This document shows, piece by piece, positions 19,172 to 24,052 of a stretch of DNA of 64,000 nt. Position numbers and translations under genes: made by a program. The notes beneath the pieces are model-generated. The model worked only from the letters and a program-made list of their open reading frames with translations. It was not told the origin of the DNA and did not search any database. Within the stretch, counting starts at the first letter, position 1; every line of letters starts with the position of its first letter. Source of the DNA: a virus. Location of the stretch: the IMG/VR virus record IMGVR_UViG_3300007512_001664, positions 62,001-126,000 of that record; one strand, given 5' to 3'.

Positions 19172-19768
19172 GTGAAGTCATTTATCGATTTTATTAACGA
19201 GGCAGGAAAGTTTCCTACAGTTACATTAACTCAACCGTATTCGCAATCGCGTCCCGGAGCAGGAAAGCGGTTCCGTAATAAGAAAGACCCCAAAAGAGCC
19301 AATCAACAACAAGCTCTAAGAGATCAAGGCTATCGCTGGGATAAAGAAAAGAAAAAATGGGTTAAAGGCACTGTTCCTGTCAGTGCATCAACCGTGGAGT
19401 CTAAACAAGCCAAGTACATTGAAGAAGCCAAAAGAGGTCGTGAGAGTTATGAGACACGTAACCCAGATTTTGTTGATGCTTTATTAGATATTTTTTCTGC
19501 CCTCCAAGATCGAAACATAGAAAAAGGAATGACGTTAAATCGTTTTACAAATCAAGACGTTATTAAACTAATCGATGATCATGAAGTTTATGGTATTAAT
19601 GGCACTAATCCATGGCCTTCACAACATAAGGAGCGTTATATATCTAATCTTCGTCGTCTACTTGGAGTTGAAACACCCGGAAGAAAGCAAAGAAAAGATA
19701 CAGGAAAAGAGCAGGGTACTCATGATACAGGTGATGAATGGTCAGATTGGCTTAAACCGGAAGCATGA
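19172..19768 (+). CDS. Putative virion-internal protein with capsid-targeting leader
   Basis: 198 residues, GTG start fixed by the TAAATA 5 nt upstream. MKSFIDFINEAGKF is the clearest T4-like leader in the window, with the I-N-E|A protease site. Then a basic Gln/Lys/Arg region includes LRDQGYRWDKEKKKWVK, a short W-containing motif found in phage proteins, and an all-helical second half follows. The mature protein is strongly basic, fitting co-packaging with DNA. ATGA overlap with the next gene. Confidence 0.6.
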   Translation: MKSFIDFINEAGKFPTVTLTQPYSQSRPGAGKRFRNKKDPKRANQQQALRDQGYRWDKEKKKWVKGTVPVSASTVESKQAKYIEEAKRGRESYETRNPDFVDALLDIFSALQDRNIEKGMTLNRFTNQDVIKLIDDHEVYGINGTNPWPSQHKERYISNLRRLLGVETPGRKQRKDTGKEQGTHDTGDEWSDWLKPEA

Positions 19769-21141
19769 GAGATACAGAAGCACAACTAATTTTTGAGACT
19801 TACGTAGAAGCAAAGGATGTAAGTCGACGAGATTTCTTTAAGCTATTAGGTAGAGGTGCTGCAACAGTCGCGACAGTTCCTTGGACTAAACTACTATCAG
19901 CTCCTAAGTTAGCTGCAGCAGTCACAGCACCATTTAAGATTGGTGCAGGTACTATACTTAATCCTCAGGCTCTGCATTGGTACTACGTTCGTAAGTTTGT
20001 TAACAAAGCAGAGGAAAGCGGTCTCACTCCAGTAGATGTAACAGATGAAAGGCATTACGAGGACCCAGTCGACGAGATATCTTTTGAAGCATTTGAGTGG
20101 GTTTCCAAGAATGTAATTAATATGTATGTTGATGATCGAGATCATGCTGTAGATAGAGAAGGAGACACGATAGCACCCACTATGGCTGAGTTGATCAATG
20201 ATCACGGATGGGATGAAGAGCATTTTATAGATGATCCTAATTTTCCGGAATGGGCGAAACCTCTTCTCACTAAAGATGAAGAAGATATGACTGATGAAGA
20301 GGAAGAAAAATATCAGAACTTAATGAATTCAAAGTGGTTTGATAAGCAGATGGTGATTAACTGGGATGGTGAGCAGGGCCATGGAGCTGATGAAGAGGTA
20401 GAAGAAATGCTAAGAAATTGGACTGGGTGGCATCACAAGTCGCCAGGGTCAGGTGATGTCGGGGGCCCCCTTCATGGTGATGAACTTATTACTACTGTCT
20501 TTGATTACATTGTAGATCTCAATCGCAAACGTAATGATGAGGGAAAGTTTATGGACATTAATGAGATAATGAAGATGGACTTTAAACAAGAGTTCTTACC
20601 TGGTGTTGTAAAGTATGCGAGAGAGCTGGCTGTAGCTCGATCAACTCGGTTGACAGGAAACCAACAGAGACAAGCAGGGCAAGATTTTCAAAAAGCTAAA
20701 GACGAGCTACAAAAAGACTACCTACCTAAAAGACCAGGCCAACCAGCTGAGTGGGATGATGTACATCCGGATGTTGAATGGTGGCACGAAGGTGATTTTA
20801 AATGGTGGGAGCGTCGGTTTGATGATGATGTTATTAATAGTGATAAGATCGAACAATATAAGGTTTTTGCTGATAAAATAATACAGAATCCTTTCGAAGA
20901 CGGCTTACTGTGGCCAACCACTGGGGAACCAGCTTATAGCCCTGAAGAAAGCAAAGCGATAATTAAAAAACTTAAACAAGAAGCACATGATTGGTTGAAA
21001 TGGTATGAGATGACAAAGGATAGTAGAAAGCCTAATCAAGCACATATCAAACATCCATATGGAGTAGGTAGACCTCAGAGCGGTTTACAAACAGCTAGTA
21101 CTAAGCCTACATTTAAACAGTTCTTTTTAATAAATAATTAA
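19765..21141 (+). CDS. Putative injected protein: AQLI leader plus Tat-type signal
   Basis: 458 residues. The type-B leader M-R-D-T-E-A-Q-L-I-F-E-T has a candidate cleavage site I-F-E|T. V-S-R-R-D-F-F-K-L-L-G-R-G-A-A-T-V-A follows at ~24-41: an exact Tat consensus S-R-R-x-F-[FL]-K with hydrophobic core, then SAPKLAAAVTA as a possible signal-peptidase site. The rest (~60-430) is acidic and Trp-rich (W-W-H-E-G-D-F-K-W-W-E), unrecognised. The last residues PTFKQFFLINN resemble the aromatic leader. No enzyme family visible. Confidence 0.6.
   Translation: MRDTEAQLIFETYVEAKDVSRRDFFKLLGRGAATVATVPWTKLLSAPKLAAAVTAPFKIGAGTILNPQALHWYYVRKFVNKAEESGLTPVDVTDERHYEDPVDEISFEAFEWVSKNVINMYVDDRDHAVDREGDTIAPTMAELINDHGWDEEHFIDDPNFPEWAKPLLTKDEEDMTDEEEEKYQNLMNSKWFDKQMVINWDGEQGHGADEEVEEMLRNWTGWHHKSPGSGDVGGPLHGDELITTVFDYIVDLNRKRNDEGKFMDINEIMKMDFKQEFLPGVVKYARELAVARSTRLTGNQQRQAGQDFQKAKDELQKDYLPKRPGQPAEWDDVHPDVEWWHEGDFKWWERRFDDDVINSDKIEQYKVFADKIIQNPFEDGLLWPTTGEPAYSPEESKAIIKKLKQEAHDWLKWYEMTKDSRKPNQAHIKHPYGVGRPQSGLQTASTKPTFKQFFLINN
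21131..21136 (+). promoter_or_regulatory. Late-type promoter element (TAAATA)
   Basis: 6 nt before ATG 21143. Confidence 0.55.
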
Positions 21142-21142
21142 G

Positions 21143-21466
21143 ATGAACGAACTTAGCAATGCAGTAACACCAACGTTTAATAAGGTAATTAAGCGTTTAT
21201 CTGAAGTAGAAGATGGTGATGCTTTATCAATAGCTAATGGTCATGTAAAAAATACCCCCAGTCTTGAGGGAACGCCTACAGTATATACACTTGATCCAGC
21301 AGATGGTAATTCTGGTATAGTACAATATTCAATGAAAAGAGAATCTGGCGGTGGATCAATGGTAGTAATTGTTAGAGAGGGTCAAGTTATCTGGTCTGGA
21401 ATTTCTATTGAAAGAGTAAGCAACATTGCAAATGCAGCGTTAATGAGCCCGGGAATAGGTAAATAA
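21143..21466 (+). CDS. Hypothetical protein
   Basis: 107 residues, no leader. C-terminal strands (SGIVQYSMKRESGGGSMVVIV, QVIWSGISIERV) suggest a small beta-rich fold. Ends in GIGK followed by TAA that belongs to the next TAAATA. Sits between two leader proteins and might be a partner of one. Confidence 0.5.
   Translation: MNELSNAVTPTFNKVIKRLSEVEDGDALSIANGHVKNTPSLEGTPTVYTLDPADGNSGIVQYSMKRESGGGSMVVIVREGQVIWSGISIERVSNIANAALMSPGIGK
21460..21465 (+). promoter_or_regulatory. Late-type promoter element (TAAATA)
   Basis: 9 nt before ATG 21475. Confidence 0.5.
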
Positions 21467-21474
21467 TTAGAACA

Positions 21475-22863: not shown

Positions 22864-23357
22864 GAGATAAAGACGCACATTTAATGATGGAAGCTTTACA
22901 AAAGGTGAATGAAGCTGAGCAAGATACACCTAGCGCTACAGCAGAAGTCCTACGACAAGTGCATAAAGAAATTGATGAGTATATGACTACGGCTGTATTT
23001 ACCGTAGGTGGTGAGGATTTAAAATGGAACGTACTTGCTATTATCAAGCAATATTTGACCGATAACCCGTCCGCCTTGCCGACGACCCCACGTGGATATG
23101 ATGAACCGTCAAATGAACCGTCAAATGATCCGTTGCAACGTGTCGCTAACTTAGCTATAGATAAAATATCAGACGGCGCACTCTCTAACCTTTCAATCAA
23201 TGATATTATTGATGTGTCTATAGAAGATATCGAGTCTGAGACAGGTGAACGACAATATGATCTTAATGAACCTAACACTCGTGATAGAATTAAAAATATA
23301 ATGATTACTGCGTTAACTAAAGATCGAAGCCATTTAATGAAAGGATATGAACGATGA
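22860..23357 (+). CDS. AQLM-leader protein with KEIDEYM module
   Basis: 165 residues: leader M-R-D-K-D-A-H-L-M-M-E-A-L-Q-K-V-N-E-A, then the KEIDEYMT...EDLKWNVLAIIKQYL module shared with the end of the 21475 product, a Pro/Asn linker with NEPSNEPSN repeat, and an acidic helical C-terminus. Overlaps the next gene by 4 nt. Confidence 0.6.
   Translation: MRDKDAHLMMEALQKVNEAEQDTPSATAEVLRQVHKEIDEYMTTAVFTVGGEDLKWNVLAIIKQYLTDNPSALPTTPRGYDEPSNEPSNDPLQRVANLAIDKISDGALSNLSINDIIDVSIEDIESETGERQYDLNEPNTRDRIKNIMITALTKDRSHLMKGYER
22965..23057 (+). repeat. Duplicated KEIDEYM module, copy 2
   Basis: Near-identical to 22099-22179 with a 12-nt longer centre. Confidence 0.75.
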
Positions 23358-23758
23358 AAGATAAAGATGCACAACTAATGATGGAAGCTTTAAAAGAAGC
23401 TGTAGGTGATTATACGGACGACCCAACTGCCGATGATGGTGGAGCAGCAGCCCAGCGCCGCACCGGTGCGTGGTTAAATGCCTATGCACCTCGCGATGAG
23501 GGATTCGGTGGTGACTTTTTTGGCTTTTTTAATAGTATCGAATTTGACGAGGCCGGCGCTCATGCGCTGGTGCAATGGTTAACACAATATAAACAAAACT
23601 ATACAGGCCCAAATGTCGACCATCCAACACGGAAGCCGCCGCATGCACAGGGCTATCAGACTCGAGACCAGTATGACGCGGATGAAGCTGAGCGAGCGCG
23701 AGCGGATCGCGAAGCAGAAGCTCGGCCAGGCAGGCAACATGGCGGCTATCCGGGATAG
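23354..23758 (+). CDS. AQLM-leader protein
   Basis: 134 residues: leader M-K-D-K-D-A-Q-L-M-M-E-A-L-K-E-A, then an acidic, Gly/Asp/Tyr-rich body (DEGFGGDFFGFFNSIEF) and a charged Arg/Glu/Ala tail. The stretch 23450-23750 is visibly more GC-rich (CCGCACCGGTGCG, GCGAGCGCGAGCGG) than its neighbours, suggesting foreign origin of the body behind a resident leader. Confidence 0.55.
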   Translation: MKDKDAQLMMEALKEAVGDYTDDPTADDGGAAAQRRTGAWLNAYAPRDEGFGGDFFGFFNSIEFDEAGAHALVQWLTQYKQNYTGPNVDHPTRKPPHAQGYQTRDQYDADEAERARADREAEARPGRQHGGYPG

Positions 23759-23785
23759 CAGGATACAGATAAGATTAATAATACA

Positions 23786-24052
23786 ATGAGAGATAAAGAC
23801 GCACAACTAATTTGGGAAACGCTTCAAGGTGCACCAGCGCCTTTACCAGTTGATAGAAATGGTAAAGAAATACAAGTAGGTGATATAATTCAAGGAGAAG
23901 CTCCTTCTAGGAATGAACCAACACCTGAGTTTGTTGTAGTAGGCGTTAGTCGTGATCCGAATATTGAAGATGCTATAAGTGTAGTTCCACTGGATGTTAA
24001 GACACAATCAGCTAAATGGTTTAGTGTTGTTGATAGTATAGGAGGTAATTAA
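23786..24052 (+). CDS. Small AQLI-leader protein
   Basis: 88 residues: leader M-R-D-K-D-A-Q-L-I-W-E-T-L-Q-G with I-W-E|T. The body is beta-rich (NGKEIQVGDIIQGEAP, FVVVGVSRDPNIEDAISVVPL), resembling a small SH3-like barrel. Shares its last base with the start of the next gene (TAATG). Confidence 0.6.
   Translation: MRDKDAQLIWETLQGAPAPLPVDRNGKEIQVGDIIQGEAPSRNEPTPEFVVVGVSRDPNIEDAISVVPLDVKTQSAKWFSVVDSIGGN

What the first reader, a model, noticed from the sequence alone, without database searches (positions are those of the whole stretch)
19765..24052. Seven nearly consecutive genes share an N-terminal leader 'M-[KR]-D-x-[DE]-A-[QH]-L-[IM]-x-E-[AT]' on unrelated bodies
Genes at 19765, 21475, 22275, 22591, 22860, 23354 and 23786 all begin with this ~13-residue segment, encoded by nearly identical DNA (ATGA[AG]AGATAAAGACGCAC...), and then diverge completely in length (88-458 aa), composition and fold. 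The leader ends at [IM]-x-E|[AT], which fits the T4 prohead-protease (gp21) cleavage rule (L/I-x-E). This looks like a modular address tag: a second type of capsid-targeting sequence placed on a set of cargo proteins, with the conserved 5' DNA serving as a hook for recombination. Established: T4 internal proteins use a different cleaved N-terminal tag. Inference: this tag does the same.
Basis: partly seen in the sequence, partly recalled or inferred. Interest (0 to 1): 0.87.

Follow-up and report, generated by a model that had tools for sequence, protein, structure and literature searches.

The report
A second phage capsid-targeting tag family
In a large uncultured T4-like phage, seven clustered genes for mostly unrelated proteins start with the same 13-residue tag; homologous proteins in related phages carry either this tag or the classical T4 capsid-targeting tag, so it probably loads a set of proteins into the virus head for injection, although nobody has yet seen these proteins in a virion.

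Summary
The leader is real. Seven of eight consecutive genes (19765-24052) start with M-[KR]-(Y)-D-x-[DE]-A-[QH]-L-[IM]-x-E-[AT]. DNA identity is 0.5-0.9 in codons 1-14 and near background on both sides. The N-terminal motif is expected 0.07 times in the window by chance. The bodies are mostly unrelated, with one shared module.

The record is a 200.8-kb T4-like myovirus with gp21, gp22 and gp23. Two genes just upstream carry canonical T4 capsid-targeting sequences (MIPFKQYIAE|A, MKSFIDFINE|A). Relatives in IMG/VR carry the same leader class (MNKDTKLIFE|AY, MKNKDTQLIWE|AY) on five further unrelated bodies, one directly before gp21 and one directly after gp23.

Key result: the leader protein before gp21 (L023) is homologous, after the leader, to a protein in the window's closest relatives that starts with a canonical targeting sequence. 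The two N-termini replace each other.

Best reading: a second class of cleavable capsid-targeting tag, resembling the N-termini of T4 gp22 (MLKEQLIAEA), T4 gp21 (MNEPQLLIET) and pelagiphage gp21 (QLIAEA) more than the aromatic internal-protein tag. Cleavage after the invariant Glu is likely but unproven: four of seven have Met at P3. The DNA-hook idea gained no support. Novelty: new variant of a known kind.

The parts
19765..21141 (+). Leader gene 1, 458 aa, MRDTEAQLIFE|T; Tat-like motif SRRDFFKLLGRG follows; C-terminus ends in a classical targeting-sequence-like remnant (KPTFKQFFLINN)
   Evidence: no Pfam/PHROG match
21143..21466 (+). Gene without leader inside the run (107 aa); conserved in relatives
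21475..22269 (+). Leader gene 2, 264 aa, MKYDTEAQLIWE|A; HNCATHVEHSKWG domain shared with cyanophage proteins, Cys-rich CPHNC...CPEC segment, C-terminal module shared with 22860
22275..22589 (+). Leader gene 3, 104 aa, MKDKDAQLMME|A; weak similarity to L021:9015 (leader variant DDKLIWE|S)
22591..22863 (+). Leader gene 4, 90 aa, MRDKDAHLMME|A
22860..23357 (+). Leader gene 5, 165 aa, MRDKDAHLMME|A; body homologous to leader proteins L014:3755 and L019:3200
23354..23758 (+). Leader gene 6, 134 aa, MKDKDAQLMME|A; contains a module also at the C-terminus of L014:2809
23786..24052 (+). Leader gene 7, 88 aa, MRDKDAQLIWE|T
24052..24354 (+). Probable divergent eighth member, MLDREQDKAINE|S (relative in L014: MLDREQDKAINE|A)
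   Evidence: inference
18384..18968 (+). Neighbour with canonical T4-type targeting sequence MIPFKQYIAE|A
19172..19768 (+). Neighbour with canonical T4-type targeting sequence MKSFIDFINE|A (GTG start)
17064..18383 (+). Fusion protein with an internal targeting-sequence-like segment (VSFKDFHNLNE|A) whose second half is a stand-alone protein in L021 (MSFLEYCKLTE|A)

Best explanation
The leader is a second class of N-terminal capsid-targeting peptide of T4-like phages. Shown: it is a short peptide module conserved at protein level, placed on many unrelated bodies, lying among or inside head genes, and interchangeable with the classical T4-type targeting sequence on one homologous body. Inferred: late in infection the leader, probably a short amphipathic helix, docks the protein on the scaffold core. 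The prohead protease gp21 then cuts after the invariant Glu ([IM]-x-E|[AT]). The freed body stays in the head with the DNA and is injected into the next host cell. Also inferred: the leader resembles the N-termini of the core proteins themselves (T4 gp22 EQLIAE|A, T4 gp21 PQLLIE|T, pelagiphage gp21 VQLIAE|A), so it may work by imitating a core subunit rather than using the aromatic F-x-x-F code of the T4 internal proteins.
For: 1) Swap: L023 protein MNKDTKLIFEAF... aligns from just after its leader (E 1e-25, 31% identity) to L014:956, which starts MSNRPSFKEFFADSLEE|G, and to L019, with RPTFKQFFAESLQE|G. 2) Position: that L023 gene lies between a gp4-like gene and gp21-gp22-gp23; L099's leader gene lies directly after gp23; L033 and L025 leader genes lie among genes with classical targeting sequences. 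3) The window cluster sits directly behind genes with perfect classical targeting sequences; 10 of 15 cluster genes against 1 of 74 other window genes have [LIM]xE[AGST] at residues 6-16 (seven of the ten are the leaders). 4) gp21 and gp23 are encoded in the same record and in most relatives with long records. 5) The leader in 26 genes is E26/26 at P1, A/T/S (one R) at P1', I or M at P3, L23/26 at P4, D/E26/26 at P7. 6) In the well-sampled L032 family, leader codons 2-12 show 330 synonymous to 145 nonsynonymous codon differences, against 787 to 825 in the body. 7) Late-promoter-like TAAATA stands before 33 of 111 starts against 3.7% at random, including 17064, 19172, 21143 and 21475. 8) The reading of classical tags holds in a cultured T4-like cyanophage: S-CREM2 ORFs 6, 12, 13, 14 and 154 have F/L-x-x-F-[LM]-x-E starts and all are in the published virion proteome (PMC10665884). 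9) None of 84,980 bacterial and archaeal genomes holds the pattern.
Against: No leader protein has been seen in a virion, and no phage with the leader was found in the cultured-phage collection. P3 is Met in 12 of 26 leaders, outside the T4 L/I rule. The aromatic residues 4 and 7 that matter for T4 IPIII targeting are absent. The leader-to-classical swap is clear on one body only, between two clades. The resemblance to gp21/gp22 N-termini partly follows from the shared cleavage motif.
Confidence: 0.75

Rival explanations
1. The leader targets the proteins to the prohead core but is not cut, or is cut only in the I-x-E copies; the LMME copies stay attached as docking peptides.
For: P3 is Met in 12 of 26 leaders. 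[quoted passage not shown]
Against: Glu at P1 is invariant in 26/26 and P1' is small (A/T/S) in 25/26, which targeting alone would not require. LMME and LIWE copies coexist on neighbouring genes.
Confidence: 0.12
2. The leader is an address for another complex (tail, baseplate, membrane or a cytoplasmic phage machine), not the capsid.
For: One leader family (L118, L094, L121) lies next to tail genes and another (L032 type) inside the replication region.
Against: The leader replaces a classical capsid-targeting sequence on a homologous body and occurs directly before gp21 and after gp23. T4 internal-protein genes also lie away from the head genes.
Confidence: 0.06
3. The conserved stretch is a DNA or RNA element at the gene start (translational operator, start-site enhancer or recombination hook), and the peptide is incidental.
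For: DNA identity among the five DKDA copies is 0.73-1.0 in codons 1-14 and the block starts at the ATG.
Against: Leader synonymous-codon identity (0.78-0.89) is not above orthologues (0.64-0.95). In the L032 family codons vary while the peptide is kept. Distant relatives keep the peptide class with different DNA.
Confidence: 0.03
4. The genes are tandem duplicates of one ancestor whose bodies decayed beyond recognition, and the leader is only the best-preserved part.
For: The genes are adjacent, on the same strand, and two share a body module.
Against: The bodies differ in length (88-458 aa), mostly show no similarity after the leader, and the leader boundary is abrupt. In other phages the leader stands on five further unrelated bodies.
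Confidence: 0.04

Closest known systems
T4 capsid-targeting sequence of IPI, IPII, IPIII and Alt (IPIII: MKTYQEFIAE|A)
   Same: Short N-terminal segment on unrelated cargo, hydrophobic residue then [I/L/M]-x-E|[A/T/S], T4-type head genes and gp21 in the genome. The MNKDTKLIFE|A form has the same 10-residue length with I8, E10 and A11.
   Different: No aromatic residues at positions 4 and 7; instead D/E at P7 and L at P4; often 11 residues; P3 can be Met. Targeting and cleavage not demonstrated.
N-termini of T4 head proteins gp22 (MLKEQLIAE|A), gp21 (MNEPQLLIE|T), gp24 (MAKINELLRE|S)
   Same: Q/E-L-[LI]-x-E|[A/T/S] within the first 11 residues; pelagiphage HTVC008M gp21 (VQLIAE|A) was the only one of about 196 ORFs of that genome with this N-terminal motif.
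   Different: There the segment belongs to the core or shell protein itself; here it stands on cargo-like proteins. Homology cannot be shown over so few residues.
Propeptides of giant phages (SPN3US, phiKZ) and the DarB signal of P1
   Same: N-terminal segments that carry proteins into heads; SPN3US paralogues gp53 and gp54 share an identical N-terminal 15-mer (PMC5694885); the DarB N-terminus packages a reporter (PMC9024508).
   Different: Mostly much longer propeptides cut at A/S-x-E (giant phages), or no motif shared among the Dar proteins (P1).

Membership tests
T4-type capsid-targeting sequence (CTS) | 10-20 residue N-terminal segment shared by otherwise unrelated proteins | tested here: met
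   Seven window genes and 19 or more genes elsewhere
T4-type capsid-targeting sequence (CTS) | Residues 4 and 7 (Tyr and Phe in IPIII), the main targeting residues (PMC9026906) | tested here: not met
   P7 is D/E in 26/26 and P4 is L in 23/26 leaders
T4-type capsid-targeting sequence (CTS) | gp21 cleavage motif L/I-x-E at the end of the segment | tested here: inconclusive
   E 26/26; P3 is I in 14 and M in 12
T4-type capsid-targeting sequence (CTS) | Genome encodes a gp21-type protease and a T4-type scaffold and capsid | tested here: met
   PF03420 E 6.5e-31 and PF07068 E 5.2e-90; gp22-like ORF between them
T4-type capsid-targeting sequence (CTS) | Interchangeable with a bona fide CTS on the same protein | tested here: met
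   By comparative genomics only: L023 against L014:956 and L019
T4-type capsid-targeting sequence (CTS) | Sufficient to package a foreign protein; removed in the mature head | not testable with these tools
   Needs fusion packaging and virion mass spectrometry
gp21/gp22-type core N-terminal propeptide | Q/E-L-[LI]-x-E|[A/T/S] near the N-terminus | tested here: met
   with Met at P3 in some copies
gp21/gp22-type core N-terminal propeptide | Common descent with the N-terminus of gp21 or gp22 | tested here: inconclusive
   Too short for a homology test; this phage's own gp21 starts MAFKLLVE|K and its gp22 MSNISDLLKQ

The most novel reading that the evidence does not exclude
A second, chemically distinct capsid-targeting code exists in uncultured T4-like phages: cargo enters the head by imitating the N-terminus of the core proteins (gp21/gp22) instead of using the aromatic internal-protein code, so one prohead core reads two codes in parallel, and one phage dedicates a block of at least seven genes to the second code.
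Probability: 0.4. Interest if true: 0.75.

Novelty: new variant of a known kind. Interest (0 to 1): 0.62.

Why it matters
Proteins injected with phage DNA (such as T4 Alt and IPI) are early weapons against host functions and defences, and they are hard to find because their bodies are unrelated. A recognisable second tag would let such cargo be predicted in uncultured phages, would give a new peptide for packaging proteins into phage heads, and makes the open question of what the scaffold core recognises testable by comparing two codes on the same body.

Tried and rejected
Cargo function: Pfam, PHROGs and PADLOC gave nothing for the window bodies beyond the HCATHVEH-type domain shared with cyanophages. 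AlphaFold on 21475 was poor (mean pLDDT 38.7); the L032-type relative gave 59.2 and no significant Foldseek match in the PDB or the viral library. Cultured phages: no tblastn match for 19765, 26053, L023, L032, L033, L014:956 or L118. Pattern false positives: 22 of 46 loci of the second scan are one family (MMKDSKLIWESF) in which the motif lies inside a 183-aa ORF, in another kind of phage without a gp21 match; L029 of the first scan is also internal. Both were discarded. DNA-level selection on the leader: tested and not supported. Literature search found no earlier description of this tag class, within an open-access library only.
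Full report
OBSERVATION. Seven genes at 19765, 21475, 22275, 22591, 22860, 23354 and 23786 start with the stated leader. Gene 21143 in the same run lacks it, and 21475 has one extra residue. The DNA pattern gives 6 matches against 0.13 expected and no further copy elsewhere in the 200,819-base record. The protein motif within the first 20 residues is expected 0.07 times in the window's genes. 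DNA identity falls to background directly upstream of the ATG and after codon 13-14, so the shared unit is the coded peptide. The bodies are mostly unrelated; 21475 and 22860 share a module. In relatives, modules of the window's bodies turn up in other combinations: a 23354 module at the end of L014:2809, and a 22860 module in L014:3755 and L019:3200.

WHERE IT LIES. The window is bases 62001-126000 of a T4-like phage record. The same record encodes gp21 (PF03420, E 6.5e-31) and gp23 (PF07068, E 5.2e-90), with portal-like and scaffold-like ORFs beside them, about 70 kb from the cluster. The gp23 N-terminal region holds a putative L-x-E site (WCLRE|G), as in relatives (CLTE|G, CLKE|N). Just upstream of the leader genes, 18384 (MIPFKQYIAE|A) and 19172 (MKSFIDFINE|A) match the T4 IPIII tag MKTYQEFIAE|A in length and at positions 7 (aromatic), 8, 10 and 11, with Phe at position 4. 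A TAAATA motif mostly 9-19 bases before the start, typical of T4-like late promoters (family knowledge), stands before 33 of 111 starts against 3.7% of random 40-mers, including four starts in the cluster. Late expression is therefore likely.

RELATIVES. Two contigs of one metagenome (L014, and L015/L019) hold the same cluster with their own sets of leader genes. A more distant one (L021) has a variant, DDKLIWE|S. A wider pattern found the class M-N-[KN]-D-x-[KQ]-L-I-F-E-A-Y and M-K-N-K-D-T-Q-L-I-W-E-A-Y at true N-termini in T4-like contigs. After removing one non-N-terminal family of 22 loci, 24 loci remain on five unrelated bodies. Of the leader records over 100 kb tested for gp21, six of seven have it (G000, G001, G002, G004, G027, G047; not G003), whereas none of the three long records of the discarded family has it. 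Shorter records are fragments and uninformative.

THE DECISIVE COMPARISON. In L036, L024, L023 and L031 the leader gene (204 aa) lies between a gp4-like gene and gp21-gp22-gp23. This is where T4 has the core genes 67 and 68. From just after the leader its body aligns to L014:956 (E 1e-25) and to the L019 fusion protein, which carry the classical forms FKEFFADSLEE|G and FKQFFAESLQE|G at that place. The same kind of protein thus carries either tag. In L099 another leader gene lies directly after gp23. In L033 the leader gene is near genes starting MRTFKRYFLNE and MLSNFSNIYRQYIINE.

SELECTION. Over 26 leaders Glu is invariant at P1, P1' is A/T/S (one R), P3 is I or M, P4 is L in 23 and P7 is D/E in all. 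In 16 L032-type proteins (down to 30% identity), eight of the first twelve residues are invariant. Their leader codons differ mostly synonymously (330 to 145), unlike the body (787 to 825). The leader is kept as a peptide. Synonymous identity of leaders between phages is no higher than that of orthologous genes, so a special role of the DNA is not supported.

WHAT IT RESEMBLES. T4 gp22 begins MLKEQLIAE|A, gp21 MNEPQLLIE|T and gp24 MAKINELLRE|S. In the cultured pelagiphage HTVC008M the only gene with the motif is gp21 itself, VQLIAE|A. The T4 internal-protein tag instead relies on residues 4 and 7 (Tyr and Phe in IPIII) for targeting and on 8 and 10 for processing (PMC9026906). The leader keeps the processing end and changes the targeting end. 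I therefore do not file it as a member of the IPIII-type CTS, although it most likely works like one. Whether it truly imitates core proteins is a hypothesis; part of the likeness is the cleavage motif.

SUPPORT FROM PROTEOMICS ELSEWHERE. In the cultured T4-like cyanophage S-CREM2, the proteins with classical tag starts in the stretches I read (ORFs 6, 12 with Cas9 annotation, 13, 14 and 154) are all in the published virion list (PMC10665884). This supports reading such tags as virion markers in this superfamily. It does not test the new leader.

UNCERTAINTY. Targeting rests on comparative evidence. Cleavage is likely for LIFE/LIWE copies and less certain for LMME copies. Injection is inferred from T4. 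Cargo functions are unknown.

Noticed in passing
19765-21141 and 17064-18383: Both proteins carry a twin-arginine-like stretch near the N-terminus (SRRDFFKLLGRGAATVATVP and NRRGFLSTLAKGIGVLA), in 19765 shortly after the leader.
   Followed up: no
17064-18383; L019:9-1679; L014:956-2122; L019:3955-5835; 19765 C-terminus: Classical targeting-sequence-like segments (PTFKQYFNEAG, RPTFKQFFAESLQEG, KKFKEFFLEYEAD, VSFKDFHNLNEAF) occur inside fused ORFs or at a C-terminus; the second half of 17064 is a separate protein in L021. This suggests gene fusions and truncations at tag boundaries, or polyproteins cut inside the head.
   Followed up: partly
24052-24354 and 24975-25187: Possible divergent leaders: MLDREQDKAINE|S, and MNAQDANTMLLTL (relative MNIHDAETMLKTL), which lacks the Glu and might be an unprocessed form.
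   Followed up: no
window:1-64000: TAAATA shortly upstream of 30% of gene starts (3.7% at random), a likely late-promoter motif of this phage.
   Followed up: partly
L061-L083, near 8001: A leader gene on the strand opposite to surrounding replication genes, preceded in all 11 copies inspected by a TAAATA-type motif about 7-9 bases before the ATG and no obvious ribosome-binding site; possibly a near-leaderless late transcript.
   Followed up: no
L118:395-955 and 1100-1699: Tandem duplicate of a leader gene (MNSDSQLIWEAY...) with a glycine-rich, membrane-like body near a gene resembling the window's tail-tube-like gene at 62229.
   Followed up: no
L129:4705-7314 (S-CREM2 ORF12): A Cas9-annotated protein present in cyanophage virions (PMC10665884) has a classical capsid-targeting segment RFASFMAE|A near its N-terminus.
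   Followed up: partly
21475-22269: The HNCATHVEHSKWG...VxFEHGxExV segment recalls the Tudor-like C-terminal domain of PcrA/UvrD helicases (from memory); the model was too poor to test it.
   Followed up: partly
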